Positions 801-38,351 of a stretch of DNA of 49,840 bases are shown piece after piece (position 1 is the stretch's first letter; every line of letters begins with the position of its first letter). The notes below the pieces were generated by a model, which saw only the letters and a list, made by a program, of their open reading frames with translations, did not search any database and was not told where the DNA came from. The stretch is from an uncultured Bacilli bacterium (lineage in GTDB: Bacteria; Bacillota_I; Bacilli_A; RFN20; CAG-449). The translations under genes and the position numbers were made by a program. Location of the stretch: the NCBI GenBank assembly GCA_944332525.1, contig CALVKD010000001.1, positions 1-49,840 of the forward strand. The letters are read 5' to 3'.

Positions 801-1444
801 ATGAATGCAATAAGAAATTCTAGACACAAAATTCTATATGAACACTATTTGAAAATTTTTCATCAGGAGCCTAATTTTAGCATACAATAAAAAAAGAAAT
901 CAGAAAAAGAGATGAATTAAAACCTATAACCACTTATATTTTTTGTCCAACTAAAGAAATGCCGTTTTGGAAGTTATGCACTATTGGAGCAAGTGATTAT
1001 TTGATGCCAAGGCGCGATATAGGTTGTGGAAGATTGTCGAATAGACGTAATGAATATATGATGTTTATTTCGCCAAATGTTGATATTAATGAATCATCTA
1101 CTGAATGGCTTAAACTAAATGCAATGCTTTGGCATACGGCTGCATATGCTTATAGAGAAGAAAAGAACATTACTGTTTCTGACACATTAGAAATTAATTT
1201 ACTCAATAAATATTGCGGTGTTGTATTGTTACTGCCGGAGCTACTAAATTCTTCAAGTTCAATAAAATGTTATACTTCTAAAAATAAGTTTGTGAGCATT
1301 TTTCAAATTATGCCAGTGACAAATGAGATGATGAAAGAAAAATTGCGTAGAGGACAAGAAGGTATTTATTGGCTAATGGAACAATTCTATACTCACGATG
1401 ATGAGTATAAAATTATTTCAACTAATGCTTTAGCAAATTTATAA
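801..1444 (+). pseudogene. Suppressor-of-fused (SUFU)-family protein, frameshifted
   Basis: Bacterial SUFU-domain proteins are often immunity proteins of polymorphic toxin loci. The frame from 959 gives 161 residues with the family pattern: PFWKLCTIGASDYLMP, then a motif around YCGVVLLLPELL, then a C-terminal helix. Homology continues upstream in the same frame (ITTYIFCPTKE just before the ATG at 959) until a TAG at 878-880, with no start codon. A matching N-terminus lies in another frame: ATG at 801 encoding MNAIRNSRHKILYEHYLKIF up to a TAA at 888. Joining the two needs a -1 shift between about 880 and 888, consistent with one lost base. The gene is therefore probably inactive, unless the shift is programmed or is a sequencing error near the seven-A run at 889-895. 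A separate 161-residue protein from 959 would lack its conserved N-terminal helix. Confidence 0.6.
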
Positions 1445-5308: not shown

Positions 5309-8300
5309 ATGGGATCAATATTTATATCGTATTGTCATCGAGACGCACATTTAGTTCTACCTTTTTGTGAATTGTTAAGAAAAAGGAATTATTTATGTTG
5401 GTTTGATAAGAAAAATATTGATGATGGAGATTTTTGGGACGAACATATCAAAACTGCGATAGCTTCTTGCCGTGTCTTTATTGCGTTTTTATCAAATGAA
5501 TATAATAATTCAATTTATTGCCGTGAGGAATTTGCTCGCGCAAAAAGAAATGATCACTGCAAAATTTTTGTTATTACAATCGGTAATGTCATGAATAATC
5601 TCAATATTCTAGATGAATACTCAGCTTATCAAGTTATTACATTAGATGGTGAAAATTTTGATCAAAATCTTTTAAATAGATTGTCAAGAAAAGAGGAATT
5701 TAATGAATGCCGCTTAATCGCTACAAATAGAAACATTGATACAGATAAGTGTAAATCTTTTTTAACATATTTAGGGCAAAACAAAGAAAGAAATTTATTA
5801 AATTATTTAAAAATGTTTTTGCAAATTTTATTAAGAATCAGCGATTTAAATTATGCTGGTCATTATTTGAATAAGCAGGCAGATTTTTCTTCGCTAGTAA
5901 TAGACGAAACTAATTCTCCAAATCCTGAGGCTTTCTTTATTAATGAAGTAGATTTTAATAAAGATTATGATGATAAAAATAGTCAAAATAATTTTATAAA
6001 AAATGTTTATATTAATTTATTTACTTTATTTCAAAATCCTTTCGCCCAAAATCTTAAAATTGAAAATATATCTTTAAGCAAAGCTTTCCTAGACTATTTA
6101 GAAAAACATTATTCAAAGCGCAGTTGCTTTAAAGGTAAGAATATTAGTCTTTTTATCAATGAAGTTTTAAAATATTTTGAAAATGAATTAAATAATCTTT
6201 TTAATGACAGCTTATTATTAGATGATTTAATCATTAAAGTATCTAATATCTATAATGCGTATGCAACTTTTATCAATATTCTTAAAAGAATAAATTTTGA
6301 GTCATCATTTGTTGATGCTAGCGTCAATGAAAAATGTTTTGAAGTTTTAAAAATCTATTACAAATATTTTTATTTAAATATAAAGATTATCAATGAATGC
6401 TTGCCAAATTTGAAAGATGAAGCAAGTGGAAAAATCTTAAGTGAAAACTTCCTAAATAAAAATATTTCTAAAAATAGCAATTTTTATTTATATGGCAATT
6501 ATGGCTGCGGGGCATCTTGCTTGTTGATTTCAGTTTTTTTTAAAACTTCTAATGTCCTTTATTTAGATTTGAGTAAAGTTGTCGAATATGCTGAGTCTGA
6601 GGAGAATTTAATTAAACATTCATTTACATTAACATACAAAAATACCTTAGGTTTAAATTATGCTCCGCTGAGCAACTACTCTTCATACTATTCGCGAGTT
6701 ACATTAATTCTTGATAATTTTGATTATTTGAATTCTGAAAATAAGAAGAGAATTTTAAAAGAATTAGATGAATTAGAAGATAGTTTTAATATTTGCTTTT
6801 ATTCGCGTAAAAGAAATATTGATAATAAAGTATATCTCGATAATCAATCCAGTAATATCTTTCAAAAGTTTTCTTATTTAGAAGTATTGCCGTTAGATTC
6901 TACAAAAATTTTAACTTATTTAGAAACATGCAATGCTGACGAAGATTTAATTAGTCAATTGAAAAATAACGATAGCCAATCATTTTTTGAATTCTTTAAC
7001 TCATTTTCAAAATTGAATATTTTTATTTCACTTAATCAAGATAATGAAATTGCTGATGAAAGAGAAACATTGATATCACCTATTAAAATGTATCAATTAT
7101 TTTTTGATAGCAAAGAGGAATTTTCTTTATCAAAAAATATTAGTACGCTGTTTGAAAACGATCTCGCGGATATCAAAGATATTATCTCGTCAGCCGTTCA
7201 AGATGAAATTGGAAAAATTGAACAAATAGCTTTCTATGGTAATTATGATGAACTAACAAAAAAACGCTTTAGGAATCTTTTTGTGAAATATAATGTTTTA
7301 TATGAAAAGGATGGAAAATATTATATTGTCGATGATTTGAAAGTGTATTTTAAAGCTAGTTATTTAAGTCATCAATTAAGAGAGAGCATCACTAATTATG
7401 ATTTTGAAAATCTTGAAAAGATGCTACTACCTTTTGCAAATCAGTATCAAGTTTTAGACTACTTGTCTGAGATGAAACTATTTGATGATAATTTTTATTT
7501 TTCTTTGGGTCAAACCCAAGAAAACAAATTTGAATGTTTAAAGGAGATAATTTATAAAATTTCTCTATATAATGATGAAGAAGAAGTTCTTAGATTAATG
7601 AGTTTAATATCACTTACCGAAATCTCTGAACATGCTTTTCTTAACTGCGAAAACTTAGAAACGATTTATTTACCAAATAATCTAAAAAAAGTCGGTCATG
7701 CGGCATTCGCTAATATGTCAAGATTGAAAAAATTAGTGTTATCTTCATTTAGCGATGAACTGATTGTATCGGCTTTTGCTATCGTAAATTGTCAGAATCT
7801 TCAAACGATTATTCTTGGTGATAACTATAAAAAATATCATCATCCTCTGTTCTTTAATTTAAAAAATTTGAAGAAAATTATCGTATCGGAAAATAATTTA
7901 TTTTTTGCTTCTTTATTAGATAATAAAATTTTGTATTCTTTTGATGGAAAAATTCTATATATCGCTGCAAATTCCTTGCAAGGAGAAATAACTTTGCCGG
8001 CAACAACTGAAGTTATTACCGAGCATTCACTTGCTTATTTAGATAAGATTACTAAGCTATCAATCAATAAAAATTGCGTTTCAATTTCTAGTGACTTTAC
8101 TGATTTTGATTTAATGCTAACTGAATATGAAGTCGATCAAAAAAATCCTTTTTTCTTTACATCTTCCGGTATTCTTTATAAAAAAGAAGATAAACTTATA
8201 CTTTTTAGATTACCACCTGGGTACAGTGGTGATGTAAAGATTAATGACGATGTAAAAGTTATTGGCGGGGATTCTCTTTCAACTTGTCAAAAAGTTAAAA

Positions 8301-8944
8301 AGATTATTTTAAATCGCGGATTAGAAAAAATCGGAAGTTATGCATTCGCAGATATTTATAATCTTGAAGAAGTTGACTTTACCGAGTCTGACATTAGAAA
8401 AATTCAGCTAGGAAATTATTTGTTTTTATCAAGCAATGATGATGTCAAAATTATTATTAAATCATTTGATGAGTTAAAAAGACTAAATCTAAAACAATTT
8501 AATAGCGTGTATAATCAAAATAATATTCATTCTATTGAATATCGGTTTAACCAACCACAAAAAATCAATATCGAATTTCTAGCGAGCAACTTTGAGATAA
8601 TTTCTAATCCGAAAAACGATAAAGAATATGCTCGAGTTGTCCTATTAAGAAATACAAAACAGTTTAGAGATGTTATTAGCATTAAAGAAACGAATTACAA
8701 CATTCTTTTAATTGGTTTAGCCGAATACAATTTAATTAATTGCAAAAGCCATGAGGAAATTATAAATTATCTCGACGATTTAATTGTTAATAGCCACATT
8801 GCCATGATGGTGTTTTTGCGCGATTTACCTATTATTGAAGAGTTCTTGTCTTTTAAAAATAAAATAGCTTTAATCAGATCTGAAAGAGACTTTCTAAAGG
8901 GATCTGCTTTATTAATCGATATGTTTAAGGAGGAAATAAAATGA
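5309..8944 (+). CDS. NLR-like protein: TIR domain - NTPase-like region - BspA-type leucine-rich repeats
   Basis: The protein is 1211 residues with three recognisable parts. Residues 1-125 are a TIR domain: it starts GSIFISYCHRD, has CWFD in strand B, and carries SIYCREEFARA, where Cys71-x-x-Glu74 matches the catalytic-Glu motif of NAD-consuming TIR enzymes. Residues about 390-620 look like a STAND/AAA-type NTPase. The P-loop position reads GNYGCGAS (near 396), with Ala replacing the usual Lys, and a Walker-B-like LILDNFDYL follows near 466-474. Residues about 765-1095 hold BspA-type leucine-rich repeats (AFLNCENLETIYLP, YAFADIYNLEEVDF). The last 100 residues (from about 1110) form an unrecognised alpha/beta-looking tail. 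This order resembles plant TIR-NBS-LRR receptors and bacterial NLR-like antiphage proteins. It overlaps the following GNAT gene by four bases (ATGA), so both are made from one message. No signal peptide is seen. An abortive-infection sensor is the favoured reading; the sensed ligand is unknown. Confidence 0.82.
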   Translation: MGSIFISYCHRDAHLVLPFCELLRKRNYLCWFDKKNIDDGDFWDEHIKTAIASCRVFIAFLSNEYNNSIYCREEFARAKRNDHCKIFVITIGNVMNNLNILDEYSAYQVITLDGENFDQNLLNRLSRKEEFNECRLIATNRNIDTDKCKSFLTYLGQNKERNLLNYLKMFLQILLRISDLNYAGHYLNKQADFSSLVIDETNSPNPEAFFINEVDFNKDYDDKNSQNNFIKNVYINLFTLFQNPFAQNLKIENISLSKAFLDYLEKHYSKRSCFKGKNISLFINEVLKYFENELNNLFNDSLLLDDLIIKVSNIYNAYATFINILKRINFESSFVDASVNEKCFEVLKIYYKYFYLNIKIINECLPNLKDEASGKILSENFLNKNISKNSNFYLYGNYGCGASCLLISVFFKTSNVLYLDLSKVVEYAESEENLIKHSFTLTYKNTLGLNYAPLSNYSSYYSRVTLILDNFDYLNSENKKRILKELDELEDSFNICFYSRKRNIDNKVYLDNQSSNIFQKFSYLEVLPLDSTKILTYLETCNADEDLISQLKNNDSQSFFEFFNSFSKLNIFISLNQDNEIADERETLISPIKMYQLFFDSKEEFSLSKNISTLFENDLADIKDIISSAVQDEIGKIEQIAFYGNYDELTKKRFRNLFVKYNVLYEKDGKYYIVDDLKVYFKASYLSHQLRESITNYDFENLEKMLLPFANQYQVLDYLSEMKLFDDNFYFSLGQTQENKFECLKEIIYKISLYNDEEEVLRLMSLISLTEISEHAFLNCENLETIYLPNNLKKVGHAAFANMSRLKKLVLSSFSDELIVSAFAIVNCQNLQTIILGDNYKKYHHPLFFNLKNLKKIIVSENNLFFASLLDNKILYSFDGKILYIAANSLQGEITLPATTEVITEHSLAYLDKITKLSINKNCVSISSDFTDFDLMLTEYEVDQKNPFFFTSSGILYKKEDKLILFRLPPGYSGDVKINDDVKVIGGDSLSTCQKVKKIILNRGLEKIGSYAFADIYNLEEVDFTESDIRKIQLGNYLFLSSNDDVKIIIKSFDELKRLNLKQFNSVYNQNNIHSIEYRFNQPQKINIEFLASNFEIISNPKNDKEYARVVLLRNTKQFRDVISIKETNYNILLIGLAEYNLINCKSHEEIINYLDDLIVNSHIAMMVFLRDLPIIEEFLSFKNKIALIRSERDFLKGSALLIDMFKEEIK

Positions 8945-10047
8945 TTATCAGAAAGGGAAGAATTGGAGAAAATGAAAATATCGTCTCTTGCGCGAATGCG
9001 GCATTTATCCCGGTTAGATATCCTGAATTTGATTTCCATATTAACATGAAAAAAATTTATGATAGCAATATCGATTATTCCCCTGAACATTTTATTGTTG
9101 AAGAAGATAATAAAATTGTTGGTGTGGCCGGTAATATTTTAAGAAAATTCTCTTGCCGAGGACAGGAGTATTTGACATCATTTGTCGGTTCCGTTGCAGT
9201 TATTCCAGAGTATCAAAATCGTTTTATTATGCGAAAAATGATGGAACAAATTGAAAAAGAAAATAAGGAAAAAGGTGTTGTTTTTTCTGTTCTAACTGGG
9301 GATAGAACGCGTTATAACCATTATGGATATGAAAAAATTGGATTTGATTATTATCTAACAGTCAATCGCCGGAGAATCAAACAAGATGATTTAAACTTAG
9401 ACATTATAGAAATTAAAGATAATTGCAATCAAATAAAAGAGGCGTTTCATATCTATTTGGAAAATGATTTTTTCAAGACCCGTGAAGAAGATAGTTTTTA
9501 TGATTACTTAATTACCGGAAAACGAAAAGTCTATATTTTAAAAATTGAAGATCGACTTATTGGTTATTTCGCGTTAAATAAAAACCTCCAGCAAATTGAT
9601 GAGTTTTATCTTACGACACTTGATTTGCTAAATGCATCCTTAAAAGGCATTTTTAATTTTTTTGAAAATGACGAATTAACATTTGTTATCTCCTCACTAA
9701 ATAAACCGTATTTATTGGCTTTCAATGATTTTGCTGAAACAACAGCAATAAAAGATAATCTCCTAGTAAAAGTTTATGATTTAAAAGCGTTTCTTAAGTT
9801 AGCTTTTAATCTTAATAAAACAGTTAAAAAGTTCGAGGATAAAGAATATATTTATCGAATTGAAGATGAAATTTATAAAATTACTATTAAGAATCAAACA
9901 ATTGATATTATTAATGGTGAATACGCCTATCAAAAATATTATCCAACGCGTAAGGATTTCCTCAGACACATTTTTACTTTAGGAAGCATTTACGATGAAA
10001 GAGATTTAAGTTTGCTCTTCTCTATTTCCTATGCCGACTTATTCTAA
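8941..10047 (+). CDS. GNAT-family N-acetyltransferase, coupled to the TIR-LRR gene
   Basis: The protein has 368 residues. The N-terminal half is a GNAT domain: IRKGRIGENENIVSCANAAF, then FVGSVAVIPEYQNRFIMRKM at the acetyl-CoA site and RYNHYGYEKIGFDYYL near residue 130. The usual Q/R-x-x-G-x-G/A pyrophosphate loop is degenerate here (YQNRFIMRK has no glycine), so cofactor binding needs testing. The C-terminal half is a second domain with the length and order of Eis-like acetyltransferases, but identity is low by eye. A strong ribosome binding site (AAGGAGG) lies inside the end of the TIR gene, and the start overlaps the TIR stop as ATGA. It could modify or restrain the TIR protein, or be an unrelated passenger; nothing in the sequence decides this. 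Confidence 0.75.
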   Translation: MIIRKGRIGENENIVSCANAAFIPVRYPEFDFHINMKKIYDSNIDYSPEHFIVEEDNKIVGVAGNILRKFSCRGQEYLTSFVGSVAVIPEYQNRFIMRKMMEQIEKENKEKGVVFSVLTGDRTRYNHYGYEKIGFDYYLTVNRRRIKQDDLNLDIIEIKDNCNQIKEAFHIYLENDFFKTREEDSFYDYLITGKRKVYILKIEDRLIGYFALNKNLQQIDEFYLTTLDLLNASLKGIFNFFENDELTFVISSLNKPYLLAFNDFAETTAIKDNLLVKVYDLKAFLKLAFNLNKTVKKFEDKEYIYRIEDEIYKITIKNQTIDIINGEYAYQKYYPTRKDFLRHIFTLGSIYDERDLSLLFSISYADLF

Positions 10048-10635
10048 CCGGTATTGCTTTAGAAGACGATAGAAAGTACCCTTTGAAACTTTAAGAACTT
10101 CTAAACATTCGTATAAGGTTAGATAGCGATGCTCATAGCAAAAAAGTATTTCTTTATAATTATCTGGAAGTTCTTTTTTAGGTCTACCAAAGCGAATACC
10201 TTTTTCTTTGGCGATACGGATTCCTTCGGCTTGTCTTTGACGAATATTTTTTCTTTCATTTTCAGCGACAAAGGATAGTATTTGTAAAACGATGTCACCG
10301 ATAAATCTTCCGACGAGATTTTTTTCGTCATCACGAGTATCTAATAAAGGCATATCAATCACTAGAATATCCGCGTGAATGGTTTTAGTAATTTTTCTCC
10401 ACTCATCTAATATCATTTGGTAATTTCTTCCAAGTCGGTCAATCGATTTAATGATTAGCAAATCACCCTCTTTAAGTTTTTTTATTAATTTCTGATAATT
10501 GCTGCGATTGAAATCTTTTCCCGATTCTTTATCTACATAGATATGTCGTGGATTTTGAACATATTTTTTTATTTCTTCAAGTTGTCTATCGATATTTTGC
10601 TGCTTACTCGAAACGCGAACGTATCCATATCTCAT
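10039..10635 (-). CDS. Serine recombinase (resolvase/invertase family)
   Basis: This site-specific recombinase has 198 residues, the normal size for small resolvases and invertases. The N-terminus MRYGYVRVSSKQQNIDRQ carries the catalytic Ser (YVRVSS). IKSIDRLGRNYQMI and the helix ENERKNIRQRQAEGI follow, then FGRPKKE and a C-terminal helix-turn-helix (YLTLYECLEVLKVSKGTFYR). The start at 10635 has AGGTGG as ribosome binding site; the longer in-frame start at 10689 lies beyond the promoter. Its 3' end overlaps the convergent GNAT gene by nine bases. No terminal inverted repeats or tnpB/tnpA partner are visible, so a whole transposon is not supported. It may act on a nearby site or be a domesticated remnant of island insertion. 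Confidence 0.9.
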   Translation of the reverse strand: MRYGYVRVSSKQQNIDRQLEEIKKYVQNPRHIYVDKESGKDFNRSNYQKLIKKLKEGDLLIIKSIDRLGRNYQMILDEWRKITKTIHADILVIDMPLLDTRDDEKNLVGRFIGDIVLQILSFVAENERKNIRQRQAEGIRIAKEKGIRFGRPKKELPDNYKEILFCYEHRYLTLYECLEVLKVSKGTFYRLLKQYRLE

Positions 10636-10668
10636 TTTGAAACACCACCTGCCTGCTGACCTTACAAA

Positions 10669-10696
10669 ATTATATACTATAGGCGGCAAGTATCAA
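10669..10696 (-). promoter_or_regulatory. Promoter of the serine recombinase gene
   Basis: On the minus strand TTGATA (10691-10696) and TATAAT (10669-10674) are separated by 16 bases, a near-consensus sigma-A promoter. It is divergent from the methyltransferase promoter about 80 bases away. Confidence 0.65.
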
Positions 10697-10748
10697 AAAT
10701 TATAAGATATTAAACTTAAATTGTCGGTTATTTTTTTGTTTGAAAATG

Positions 10749-10777
10749 GTAACAAATGTAACTTTTTTTGATATAAT
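10749..10777 (+). promoter_or_regulatory. Promoter of the DNA methyltransferase gene
   Basis: An extended -10 (TG-A-TATAAT, box at 10772-10777) has a weak -35 GTAACA at 10749-10754 with 17-base spacing. The -35 lies in a short direct repeat GTAAC-AAAT-GTAAC (10749-10762) that could be an operator. Confidence 0.5.
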
Positions 10778-10842
10778 TATTACTACAAGTGGAGTTGAAA
10801 AAGGTATACATTTTTATACTTATGGGGATTGATGAGGTTAAA

Positions 10843-12267
10843 TTGAGCGATAAGATAGTCGATAATTATCACTTAGATATTGATAAATATGGCTTTTCTG
10901 AAGTATGGGAAAAGTATCTTTTTATTATAAAAAATGATTCTCAAAAATTTATTAATCGCTATTTTCCATTAGAATTCATCGGTTTTATGTATGAAAATGG
11001 ATATTTATATTCGCAAACCGGCGATAATAAATTGCCACAATCACAATTTACTCCTAGTGATGTTTCACGTATCGTGGCAGAACTAATAGCCGATAGCGAT
11101 ATAAAGACTATTTCTGATGTTTGCTGCGGAAATGGAAATTTAATTATTAGCATTCTATCGGAAGTTAAAAAAATTGATATACAATTATTAAATAATTTAA
11201 ATGATAAAATTTATCTTTACGATATTGATCCATTAGCTTTAAAAGTAGCGGCTGTCAGAATAAAAAGCCTTTTTTCGCTGAACATTCCAGAAAAAAATTT
11301 ACTTCTTGGAGATTTTTTAAGCGAAGATATTAAATTACCTCCATATACATACGCGGTATGTAATCCACCTTTAGATAATAAAGGATACAATAAAGACTAT
11401 TTTCTCTTTTTCTTTGATAAGATACTAAAATCAGCTTCAAAGTTTGTCTTTATTGGTCCTCAAACCATAGTAGATGAACAAAAGTATTCTGATTTTAGAA
11501 AGAAGTTAATGAATAATTCTTTTGGGGATATATTTTGCTTTGACAATGTTCCCGATGCCCTCTACCCAATTGAAAAAGGTAATTTCGGAATGAAAACTTG
11601 CATTATTAATGGAGAATGCGATTTTTCACATCGCGGATACCGTCTCACCCATTTAATAAGATTTAATAAAAATGAGCGAGCTAAAGTTTTAACAATAGAT
11701 TATCTACTATCATGTTTAGGAACAATTAGACAAGATTTAGTTAAGCCATTAAAACTTCATAGAAAAACTGAAGATTTCGTTGTTTCTTGCTATCAAGGCG
11801 AGGACACATTAGCATCGCTTTGCTCTGAAAATAAAAATGAATTTTCTTTAAATGTTATTAATTCTGGACGTTACTATTTAGCGGCTTGTAAGCATGAAAT
11901 AAAAAGACATGGGGCATTTAAAATATATGCCAAGGATAGTGATTCTTTTGTTATTTTATATCTGCTTCTTAATTCTTCGTATTGTTACTTGTTTTTCCGT
12001 TCAATCGGTAATGGTTCAATACTTTCTAAAAAAGAACTATTATCTTATCCATACCCAAAAGTTGTTTTGACAGAGGAATTGCGAACCATAGTTAAATTTA
12101 TGATTAATCAAGAGAACAAATTGATAAAATCAAAATTTGTTCAAGGTGAACTGCAAGAGCATTTAAAATTTCCTGAAATATACTGTGAATTTATAGATAA
12201 TTTATTATTTGAAAAAAATTTCAAATTTCTTCATAAAAACTACGAAATCTCTGATAAGAGCGATTAA
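10843..12267 (+). CDS. N6-adenine DNA methyltransferase (HsdM-like, with specificity-like C-terminus)
   Basis: The gene encodes a SAM-dependent DNA methyltransferase of the type I/IIG class. It shows QSQFTPSDVSRIVAEL (the pre-motif-I segment of HsdM proteins), motif I DVCCGNGNLI and a YDIDPLAL segment. The catalytic motif reads CNPPLDNKG: Leu sits where N6-methylases normally have Phe, Tyr or Trp, so activity may be reduced. The C-terminal 150 residues contain FFRSIGNGSILSKKELLSYP, resembling target-recognition segments of HsdS or type IIG enzymes. No hsdR or separate hsdS is nearby. Start choice is uncertain: TTG at 10843 has GAGG five bases upstream; in-frame ATG 10822 and GTG 10789 are alternatives with no usable RBS. 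It borders the TIR island, fitting a role in self-marking. Confidence 0.78.
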   Translation: MSDKIVDNYHLDIDKYGFSEVWEKYLFIIKNDSQKFINRYFPLEFIGFMYENGYLYSQTGDNKLPQSQFTPSDVSRIVAELIADSDIKTISDVCCGNGNLIISILSEVKKIDIQLLNNLNDKIYLYDIDPLALKVAAVRIKSLFSLNIPEKNLLLGDFLSEDIKLPPYTYAVCNPPLDNKGYNKDYFLFFFDKILKSASKFVFIGPQTIVDEQKYSDFRKKLMNNSFGDIFCFDNVPDALYPIEKGNFGMKTCIINGECDFSHRGYRLTHLIRFNKNERAKVLTIDYLLSCLGTIRQDLVKPLKLHRKTEDFVVSCYQGEDTLASLCSENKNEFSLNVINSGRYYLAACKHEIKRHGAFKIYAKDSDSFVILYLLLNSSYCYLFFRSIGNGSILSKKELLSYPYPKVVLTEELRTIVKFMINQENKLIKSKFVQGELQEHLKFPEIYCEFIDNLLFEKNFKFLHKNYEISDKSD

Positions 12268-37172: not shown

Positions 37173-38351
37173 ATGAAATATTTTGTAAGACAAAATTTCC
37201 CTAAGGAATGTGGTTTTGTTTGTCTGAAGATTCTTTTAAGTAATTTAAATAATGATGAGAATTACTTGTTTTTGCCATCTCCAGAAATTAATGAAGATTA
37301 CTCATTTTATGATTTAATTAAGGAAGGTGAAAAATATAATTTAACATTGAAAGGCTATGCCATAGATACCCTAGAAGAAATCACTTTGCCCTGCATAGCT
37401 TTGATAAGGTTAGATTCGACAGATCATTATGTTGTAATCTATAATAGCAATAAAAAATATTTTCGGATTTTTGACCCTGGTTTAGGAAAAACAAAAATTC
37501 TAAAAAAGAAATTTCAAAGTCTTTCAAAAAAATGTTATTTATTGGTTGAAAGCCATCACAAGACAAAAATTAAATCACAATTTTTCTATAGTCAAAAATA
37601 CTATCATTTCCTACAAATTATTAGTGCGTTTCTTCAAGTCTTTTTTCTATTTTTAATATCGTTTCAAACTCAGAAAATTAATATTATATTTTTTATTAGT
37701 ATAATTTTATTTGTTTTGTCTATTATATTTAGTCAAATAACACATTCAGTTTTCATGAGAAAGTTTGATAGAAAAATTATCTATCCATTTTTAAAATTGA
37801 TTGATAATGTTAGCTATCGACAGGCGCATAAATATATTGAAAACGAGTATGAATTAAAGAAATCTTTATTCATGCAAAATATTTCTTTATTAAATTGTTG
37901 CTTGTATATTGGATTTGTTCTTGTGATTTTGATGATTAATGATTATTGGAATATTATTAGCGTAATCTTTATATTAATATGTAGTATTTTCAAGTGTTAT
38001 TTCACATATTGCCATCAAAGAAAACTTCTCTCAAAAATTGAATCCTTAGAGCATAGTGAAAAAAATTATTCCTATAATTACCGGATTGCGGATGAATTAT
38101 CTTACAATTATGCCTTTTCAATAAAAATTATAGATTATATTTCAATAGTCGTAATTGTTGCGATTAATATTGCTATTTGCCATTTTCGCAGTTATATCCA
38201 TCTATTTATTTATTATTTTTTCTTAGGCAAACTTCTTTACGAAAATATGTATAATGTCTATAACCTTAAAGATAAAAAGGACTTAATTCGAAAAAGAATA
38301 GCTTATCACGTAACGGTAAGTCATTACTATAATAGTAAATCAAATTCATAG
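37173..38351 (+). CDS. Peptidase C39-like membrane protein lacking the ABC ATPase
   Basis: The protein has 392 residues. The N-terminal 130 look like a C39 bacteriocin-processing peptidase: QNFPKECGFVCLKILL with the candidate catalytic Cys13, DHYVVIYN with His and FDPGLGKT with Asp. From about residue 145 there are about five or six hydrophobic segments, laid out like the membrane domain of a C39-type ABC exporter. The protein ends without any Walker A or ABC signature. It may be a degenerate exporter needing a separate ATPase, or a stand-alone membrane protease. The DNA is notably AT-rich compared with dnaI and ybeY on either side. The ribosome binding site is AGGAGG. Confidence 0.65.
   Translation: MKYFVRQNFPKECGFVCLKILLSNLNNDENYLFLPSPEINEDYSFYDLIKEGEKYNLTLKGYAIDTLEEITLPCIALIRLDSTDHYVVIYNSNKKYFRIFDPGLGKTKILKKKFQSLSKKCYLLVESHHKTKIKSQFFYSQKYYHFLQIISAFLQVFFLFLISFQTQKINIIFFISIILFVLSIIFSQITHSVFMRKFDRKIIYPFLKLIDNVSYRQAHKYIENEYELKKSLFMQNISLLNCCLYIGFVLVILMINDYWNIISVIFILICSIFKCYFTYCHQRKLLSKIESLEHSEKNYSYNYRIADELSYNYAFSIKIIDYISIVVIVAINIAICHFRSYIHLFIYYFFLGKLLYENMYNVYNLKDKKDLIRKRIAYHVTVSHYYNSKSNS

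What the first reader, a model, noticed from the sequence alone, without database searches (positions are those of the whole stretch)
5309..8944. A bacterial TIR-NTPase-LRR protein resembling plant TNL immune receptors
The sequence shows an N-terminal TIR domain with the catalytic-Glu pattern (Cys71-x-x-Glu74), a central NTPase-like region, and BspA-type leucine-rich repeats. TIR enzymes that consume NAD and STAND or NACHT sensors are established antiphage effectors, but the exact order TIR - NTPase - BspA LRR is, as far as I know, seldom reported in bacteria. An abortive-infection sensor that triggers NAD loss through the LRR is the inference.
Basis: partly seen in the sequence, partly recalled or inferred. 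Interest (0 to 1): 0.78.

Follow-up and report, generated by a model that had tools for sequence, protein, structure and literature searches.

The report
Composite TIR receptor with acetyltransferase partner
A small-genome bacterium carries a large protein laid out rather like a plant immune receptor, with an NAD-cutting type head, a part that looks like a dead kinase, a worn-out ATP-binding part and leucine-rich repeats, next to the same acetyltransferase gene in all four genomes where it was found, so it is probably an infection alarm of an unusual build.

Summary
Window 5309-8944 is an intact 1211-residue gene with an N-terminal TIR (Cys71-x-x-Glu74, invariant in the four family members found) and BspA-type LRRs. 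The centre is P-loop NTPase-like, but the Walker A lysine is Ala, Ala, Thr or Glu in the four members.

Residues ~133-331 are predicted to resemble a kinase C-lobe without catalytic residues (pTM 0.75; all 50 rows listed are kinases, Z up to 10.7; no sequence support). Residues 1078-1211 resemble the HPr-kinase N-terminal domain. The gene overlaps a GNAT acetyltransferase gene; of 18 family genomes, the same four hold both genes, side by side.

No other real match was found in 279 order genomes or in class and phylum samples. Shorter TIR-LRR proteins without an NTPase match occur elsewhere in the order. Between the two closest members the kinase-like part, not the LRR, differs most.

Most likely a two-gene sensor-effector unit of abortive-infection type that works like, but fails tested membership features of, STAND switches and plant TNLs. 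NADase activity, trigger and phage defence are inferred. New variant of a known kind.

The parts
5309..8944 (+). 1211-aa composite protein: TIR / kinase-like region / degenerate P-loop / helical / BspA LRR / HprK_N-like
5309..5683 (+). TIR domain (residues 1-125); only solved relative at E <= 0.01 is the CRISPR-associated TIR Cat1
   Evidence: Pfam TIR_2 E 5.5e-19; Cat1 9mud E 6.6e-9 over residues 3-102, C71 and E74 aligned to C and E of Cat1
5519..5530 (+). Cys71-x-x-Glu74, putative catalytic glutamate
   Evidence: invariant in 4 of 4 family members
5705..6301 (+). region predicted to resemble a kinase C-lobe without catalytic residues (residues ~133-331); most divergent segment between G000 and G001
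   Evidence: AF2 of residues 115-385: pTM 0.75, mean pLDDT 68; VIA-align best Z 10.7, rmsd 2.4 A, 149 residues; Foldseek best E 0.029, none <= 0.001; no sequence-profile signal; dN 0.213
6476..6988 (+). P-loop NTPase-like domain (residues ~390-560), Walker A lysine missing
6494..6517 (+). degenerate Walker A GNYGCGAS (residues 396-403)
   Evidence: same in G001, GSEGSGTS in G002, GDVGCGER in G014
6704..6724 (+). Walker B-like LILDNFD (466-472); L466, L468 and D469-D472 invariant
6989..7600 (+). mostly helical region (residues 561-764)
   Evidence: DSSP on the low-confidence model
7601..8539 (+). BspA-type LRR region (residues 765-1077)
   Evidence: LRR_5 E 2.2e-18; solved LRR proteins 4fs7, 4cp6, 4gt6
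8540..8941 (+). HPr-kinase N-terminal-like domain (residues 1078-1211)
   Evidence: Pfam PF02603 in 3 of 4 members, best E 2.1e-5, window member E 0.0029 and below cut-off; profile comparison 25.6 over 99 columns against a shuffle maximum of 22.0
8941..10047 (+). GNAT acetyltransferase (Acetyltransf_9), overlaps the TIR gene by 4 bases
   Evidence: Pfam E 1.4e-16; full-length or nearly full-length copies in exactly the 4 TIR-bearing genomes of 18

Best explanation
A cytoplasmic two-gene immune unit. The large protein is both sensor and effector: in the resting state its TIR domain is held apart by the kinase-like region, the degenerate P-loop scaffold and the LRR; an infection-related partner makes the protein assemble so that TIR domains pair and hydrolyse NAD (or make an ADP-ribose signal), ending in growth arrest or death. 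Because the P-loop lacks its lysine, the NTPase-like part is more likely an assembly scaffold, or a nucleotide binder without hydrolysis, than a true ATP switch. The overlapping GNAT is most likely a partner that modifies or restrains the receptor, or a second effector. Shown: TIR and LRR domains, missing lysine, invariant Glu, gene pair in four genomes, purifying selection. Predicted only: kinase-like fold. Inferred: NADase activity, trigger, phage defence, role of GNAT.
For: TIR with invariant C71 and E74; only solved relative Cat1. The TIR starts at the first residues, read as cytoplasmic (no signal-peptide program was run). TIR-NLR proteins protect E. coli against phages (PMC9122126, passages seen). 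Patchy presence: 4 of 18 family genomes. TIR and GNAT side by side with overlapping ORFs in 4 of 4. In G002 two more LRR genes, one a TIR-LRR, lie directly downstream. TIR, GNAT, resolvase and methyltransferase genes have dS 0.95-1.04; the seven other genes compared have 0.26-0.67. A resolvase and an N6-type methyltransferase gene lie just downstream.
Against: No functional data. For the TIR protein, PADLOC and NCBIfam give only weak matches to TIR parts. No copy found in viral contigs, plasmids or phages. The TIR Glu also occurs in non-enzymatic TIRs (PMC7075850). The HprK_N-like end could point to metabolic regulation. High dS of the block could also reflect weaker codon bias. Three of the four members are one genus, so the gene-pair link rests on few independent events.
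Confidence: 0.45

Rival explanations
1. Toxin-and-restraint or signal-and-effector pair: the TIR protein makes an NAD-derived signal or is toxic, and the GNAT either acetylates and silences it or is itself the effector switched on by the signal (Thoeris-like logic with a GNAT effector).
For: GNAT in exactly the 4 TIR-bearing genomes of 18, directly downstream with overlapping ORFs; both genes similarly constrained between G000 and G001, dN/dS 0.09 and 0.06.
Against: No ADP-ribose-binding family in the GNAT by Pfam; the acetyl-CoA loop glycine (motif recalled) is Phe in G000 and G001 (QNRFIM), Gly in G002 and G014, so GNAT activity itself is uncertain.
Confidence: 0.2
2. Non-enzymatic regulator: the TIR is an interaction module and the protein senses carbon or phosphate state through its HPr-kinase-N-like end; it has nothing to do with phages.
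For: HprK_N-like C-terminus; a true HPr kinase gene is present in the genome; neighbours in three of the four genomes are metabolic (MFS, GDPD, HAD).
Against: Those three neighbours were not found in the 20 kb taken around the G014 copy; patchy distribution and high divergence fit conflict genes better; TIR Glu invariant.
Confidence: 0.15
3. A conventional STAND/NLR switch in which a non-lysine Walker A still binds and turns over ATP.
For: Walker B-like D469-D472, L466 and L468 invariant, as are S499, K501 and R502; the low-confidence model has rows for Avs4 (Z 5.4), NOD2 (4.5) and NLRP3 (4.3).
Against: The lysine position is A, A, T, E and no GxxxxGK[ST] occurs anywhere in the four proteins; no NACHT, NB-ARC or nSTAND match.
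Confidence: 0.1
4. Inter-bacterial or host-directed factor (BspA LRR proteins are often adhesins, recalled) rather than an internal sensor.
For: BspA-type LRR; LRR-part matches to other proteins in many relatives.
Against: No N-terminal extension for export is seen by eye: the TIR match starts at residue 4.
Confidence: 0.05

Closest known systems
Bacterial TIR-NLR / TIR-STAND proteins (E. coli P4 TIR-NLR, PMC9122126; L004 in this same genome)
   Same: N-terminal TIR joined to a P-loop NTPase-type centre in one large chain (for L004; details of the E. coli protein recalled)
   Different: Degenerate Walker A, no NACHT/nSTAND match, BspA LRR and HprK_N-like end, inserted kinase-like region, GNAT partner
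Plant TNL immune receptors (TIR-NB-ARC-LRR)
   Same: Order TIR, NTPase-like, LRR; NADase-type Glu
   Different: No NB-ARC match, Walker A lysine missing, BspA-type LRR, extra domains, LRR not the most divergent part in the pair compared; I read the resemblance as convergent (inference, no tree was made)
Short bacterial TIR-BspA LRR proteins of the same order (L121, L122, L123, L127, and G002 554 aa)
   Same: TIR followed by LRR_5 in one chain; one lies downstream of the homologue in G002
   Different: 416-734 residues; no NTPase or kinase match by Pfam
CRISPR-associated TIR Cat1 (PDB 9mud)
   Same: Only solved TIR found by sequence at E <= 0.01 (E 6.6e-9), C and E aligned
   Different: 263-residue chain of a CRISPR-linked filament; only residues 3-102 align
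HPr kinase/phosphorylase N-terminal domain (PF02603)
   Same: The C-terminal 134 residues align over 99 columns
   Different: No HPr kinase catalytic domain matched; window member below Pfam's cut-off (18.0 against 24 bits)

Membership tests
TIR domain family (PF13676) | profile match over curated cut-off | tested here: met
   69.3 bits against 28
TIR NADase | conserved catalytic Glu | tested here: met
   E74 invariant in 4 of 4; the Glu is also frequent in TIRs without reported activity (PMC7075850)
TIR NADase | NAD cleavage dependent on that Glu | not testable with these tools
   needs an enzyme assay
STAND NTPase (NACHT, NB-ARC, nSTAND) | Walker A GxxxxGK[ST] | tested here: not met
   GNYGCGAS, GNYGCGAS, GSEGSGTS, GDVGCGER; no intact motif in any of the four proteins
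STAND NTPase (NACHT, NB-ARC, nSTAND) | match to a STAND family profile | tested here: not met
   none at E up to 1 for the window protein, none at E up to 10 for the middle regions of the 4 members, filters dropping most weak matches; L004 as positive control matches NACHT and nSTAND1
STAND NTPase (NACHT, NB-ARC, nSTAND) | P-loop fold with Walker B | tested here: inconclusive
   short sequence-profile match to P-loops; model of pLDDT 58 gives AAA+/STAND rows at Z 5.5 or less
Plant-type TNL | NB-ARC domain between TIR and LRR | tested here: not met
   no NB-ARC match; Walker A lysine absent
BspA-type LRR (PF13306) | profile match over cut-off | tested here: met
   66.8 bits against 27.7
Protein kinase fold | kinase-like C-lobe fold | tested here: inconclusive
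   for: pTM 0.75, all 50 listed rows kinases in Foldseek and in VIA-align, best Z 10.7. Against: Foldseek best E 0.029, TM-scores 0.37 or less; Z under about 13 may mean little for helical parts (tool's note); VIA-align re-ranks Foldseek's own list; no sequence-profile signal to 21 bacterial kinases
Active protein kinase | HRD Asp, catalytic Asn, DFG, N-lobe lysine | tested here: not met
   by my own register on the model (motifs recalled): Asp position Q/Q/K/E, Asn position S/S/T/S, no Gly after the conserved F, most of the N-lobe absent; holds only if the fold is right
HPr kinase N-terminal domain (PF02603) | profile match | tested here: inconclusive
   3 of 4 members match at E up to 10, best 2.1e-5, window member 0.0029 below cut-off; full-length G014 19.4 bits against 24, full-length G002 none at E 0.1; profile comparison above all 200 shuffles but E 0.0013, probability 18%, and the window sequence alone scores only 15.7; at E up to 1 this model also rings in 9 of 14 control genomes
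Known antiphage systems (PADLOC 2.0.0, NCBIfam) | match of the TIR protein to a system-specific model | tested here: not met
   only weak matches to TIR parts, e.g. ThcB4 27.9 bits against a cut-off of 220

The most novel reading that the evidence does not exclude
A bacterial receptor with an integrated pseudokinase bait: the fast-changing, catalytically dead kinase-like lobe between TIR and scaffold is what phage proteins (or phage kinases) bind or modify, and the degenerate P-loop plus LRR form a non-switching scaffold that releases the TIR, with the GNAT resetting or licensing it. This would be an independent bacterial invention of the integrated-decoy logic known from plant receptors (recalled), in a TIR-scaffold-LRR frame. 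Odds lowered from 0.12 to 0.10 on re-check, because the kinase fold is inconclusive by the aligner's own rule for helical parts.
Probability: 0.1. Interest if true: 0.85.

Novelty: new variant of a known kind. Interest (0 to 1): 0.56.

Why it matters
As far as I recall, bacterial TIR sensors are usually coupled to intact STAND switches or to separate sensor proteins. A TIR receptor that keeps a plant-like order with LRRs, has no P-loop lysine in any of the four members found and carries a dead kinase-like part would suggest that the TNL layout arose more than once and that the NTPase part can serve as a mere scaffold. The GNAT next door adds a possible new partner type and gives a directly testable gene pair.

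Tried and rejected
The peptide-pattern search of one-genome-per-species contigs (close relatives only) confirmed 2 of 20 candidate stretches: L042, apparently the same contig as G001:C3 (same length), and L043, a short match inside an unrelated 796-aa ORF that reads to me like a penicillin acylase, rejected. The class-wide profile hit G607 lies in a 46-codon frame with five stops: rejected as chance. Viral contigs, plasmids, phages: nothing. PDB sequence search with the middle-region profile: nothing at E up to 10. Kinase identity by sequence profile against 21 bacterial kinases (of 30 loci, chosen by HRD/DFG pattern): E 0.56, no signal. C-terminal profile against solved structures: nothing below E 1. 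GNAT: no solved relative at E <= 0.01. Promoter-like (29, shuffles 33.6) and terminator-like sites (2, shuffles 1.6) are about as many as in shuffles. Considered and rejected: pseudogene (no stops, dN/dS 0.09); sequencing error at the lysine (Ala, Thr, Glu in different genomes). No tree was made.

Literature: (open-licence PMC library only). None of the listings or passages that I saw describes a bacterial TIR-NTPase-BspA-LRR protein. Passages were seen in PMC12169576, PMC11291487, PMC11249213, PMC10907252, PMC9122126, PMC10952713, PMC7075850, PMC8195603, PMC13174449 and PMC12847820; the others were seen as listing entries only. The paper on bacterial NLR-related proteins (PMC10294775) is not held, so prior report there is not excluded.
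Full report
The gene. Window 5309-8944 (+) is an intact 1211-codon ORF. Pfam finds TIR_2 at 4-121 (E 5.5e-19) and LRR_5 with a best stretch at 768-863 (E 2.2e-18); AAA is only suggested at 393-503 (E 0.026, below cut-off). Solved LRR proteins match the LRR region and Cat1 matches the TIR. C71 and E74 are invariant in the four family members. A published TIR survey says that the frequency of this Glu does not necessarily follow reported activity (PMC7075850, passages seen), so NADase activity stays inferred.

Homologues. In 196 relatives, 149 had some match at E <= 0.001; in the rows listed (the list was cut) only three others span the whole protein: G001 (85%), G002 (37%) and G014 (36%); most other rows match the LRR part. 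A profile of residues 126-765 found these 4 of 279 genomes in the order. In a class sample of 395 it found 3 of them plus one chance match, and in a phylum sample of 392 it found 3; G014 is not among the matches of these two samples, which overlap with each other and with the order. Viral contigs, plasmids and phages gave none. So, as far as searched, the full architecture is a narrow, patchy family within one bacterial family.

The NTPase. The expected P-loop is GNYGCGAS here and in G001, GSEGSGTS in G002 and GDVGCGER in G014; no GxxxxGK[ST] occurs anywhere in the four proteins. A profile comparison with ten P-loop NTPases of mixed families aligns this stretch to genuine Walker A motifs (24.9 against a maximum of 18.3 in 200 shuffles), but over 17 columns only, E 0.0046, probability 7.6%. 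In the Walker B-like LILDNFDY, L466, L468 and D469-Y473 are invariant. The model of 126-765 is of low confidence (pLDDT 58), with alternating strands and helices in this part and weak AAA+/STAND similarity. I read it as a degenerate P-loop domain. As a control, another TIR protein of the same genome, L004, has GEIGSGKS and matches NACHT and nSTAND1.

The kinase-like region. Predicted alone (115-385) the region gave pTM 0.75 and mean pLDDT 68, 55 of 271 residues below 50. All 50 rows listed by Foldseek are kinases or kinase complexes (best E 0.029, none below 0.001, TM-scores 0.37 or less, most rmsd above 10 A). All 50 rows listed by VIA-align are kinase-fold proteins, many of them entries of the same few kinases (best Z 10.7, rmsd 2.4 A, 149 residues). 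Only the C-lobe and a little of the N-lobe are covered, and by my register the catalytic Asp, Asn and DFG Gly are missing. Against this: VIA-align re-ranks Foldseek's list, its notes warn that Z under about 13 may mean little for helical parts, a sequence profile of 21 bacterial kinases gives no signal, and the alignment has four sequences, two of them close. I call it likely but unproven.

The C-terminus. Residues 1078-1211 match HPr kinase N in 3 of 4 members (best E 2.1e-5; window member 0.0029, below cut-off). A profile comparison with 17 HPr kinases (of 30 loci, those with a recognisable motif) scores 25.6 over 99 columns (E 0.0013, probability 18%); 200 shuffles reach 22.0 at most, the reversed profile 12.4. 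Singly, the members score 15.7 (window), 20.1, 16.3 and 29.5 (G014), so the signal comes mainly from G014 and from the profile.

The partner. The next gene, a GNAT (Acetyltransf_9), overlaps by 4 bases. In 18 family genomes, 7 had a match: four full-length or nearly so (G014 over 3-354 of 368), exactly the TIR-bearing genomes, and three weak partial ones (E 3e-5 to 1e-4). In all four the pair is side by side with overlapping ORFs as called from the first start (4, 4, 35 and 8 bases). The surroundings differ in G014 and are rearranged in G002. Three of the four are one genus, so independence is limited. In G002 two more genes follow: a TIR-LRR of 554 aa (TIR_2 27.6 bits, just under the cut-off of 28) and a 622-aa LRR protein whose N-terminus looks to me like a degenerate TIR without the Glu (Pfam finds no TIR there).

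TIR-LRR elsewhere. Searching 273 genomes of the order with the 554-aa protein, 101 had a match at E <= 1e-12, most listed rows in the LRR part only. Four loci whose match covers the TIR were inspected (L121, L122, L123, L127): all four have TIR_2 (27.0, 29.0, 40.2 and 37.7 bits; the first is under the cut-off) and LRR_5, and no NTPase match. Other rows were not inspected. So TIR-BspA LRR recurs in this order; the NTPase-containing form is the rare one.

Evolution. Between G000 and G001 (my own NG86 script, one pair of genomes), dN/dS of the TIR gene is 0.09. Amino-acid identity per segment: TIR 94.4%, kinase-like 65.8%, linker 74.4%, NTPase 83.6%, helical 90.7%, LRR 90.7%, HprK_N-like 88.8%; dN/dS 0.05-0.19, nowhere above 1. 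The TIR, GNAT, resolvase (187 codons compared) and methyltransferase genes have dS 0.95-1.04; the seven other genes compared have 0.26-0.67. The most divergent part is the kinase-like region, also with the highest dN/dS (0.19), which argues mildly against the LRR as the main recognition surface; relaxed constraint is an alternative.

Mechanism. I commit to a two-gene sensor-effector unit of abortive-infection type: TIR as effector, degenerate P-loop and LRR as scaffold, the kinase-like region as the likeliest recognition or control surface, GNAT as regulator or second effector. NADase activity, trigger and phage defence are inferred from known TIR systems (TIR-NLR in PMC9122126, SpbK in PMC12847820; passages seen).

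Comparison. It works like a TIR-NLR or, in layout, like a plant TNL, but fails tested defining features of STAND and TNL (Walker A, family profiles). I file it as a new variant of the bacterial TIR receptor kind.

Noticed in passing
L004 (G000:C20:12581-15928): A second TIR protein in the same genome with an intact P-loop and NACHT/nSTAND1 match, an ordinary TIR-STAND protein.
   Followed up: partly
L002 (G000:C34) and L005 (G000:C2): Two proteins in frames of 439 and 454 codons in which a TIR domain seems fused to what reads to me like a SAM-dependent methyltransferase; such a fusion occurs twice in this genome.
   Followed up: no
L059:4233-7767 (G002): Two tandem LRR_5 genes directly downstream of the TIR-GNAT pair, one with a TIR, the other with what looks like a degenerate TIR lacking the glutamate.
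   Followed up: partly
window 10039-12267: Serine recombinase (resolvase) beside a lone N6-type DNA methyltransferase (PADLOC MTase_II E 4.6e-25), also present in G001 and with dS near 1 between the two genomes.
   Followed up: partly
window 959-1444: A SUFU-domain protein (Pfam E 3.1e-7) near the contig end.
   Followed up: no
window 37173-38351: Membrane protein with an N-terminal segment that reads to me like a C39-type peptidase domain, without an ABC transporter part in the frame.
   Followed up: no
window 8941-10047: In G000 and G001 the GNAT acetyl-CoA loop reads QNRFIM, where G002 and G014 have a glycine (QNRGYM, SNKGYM).
   Followed up: partly
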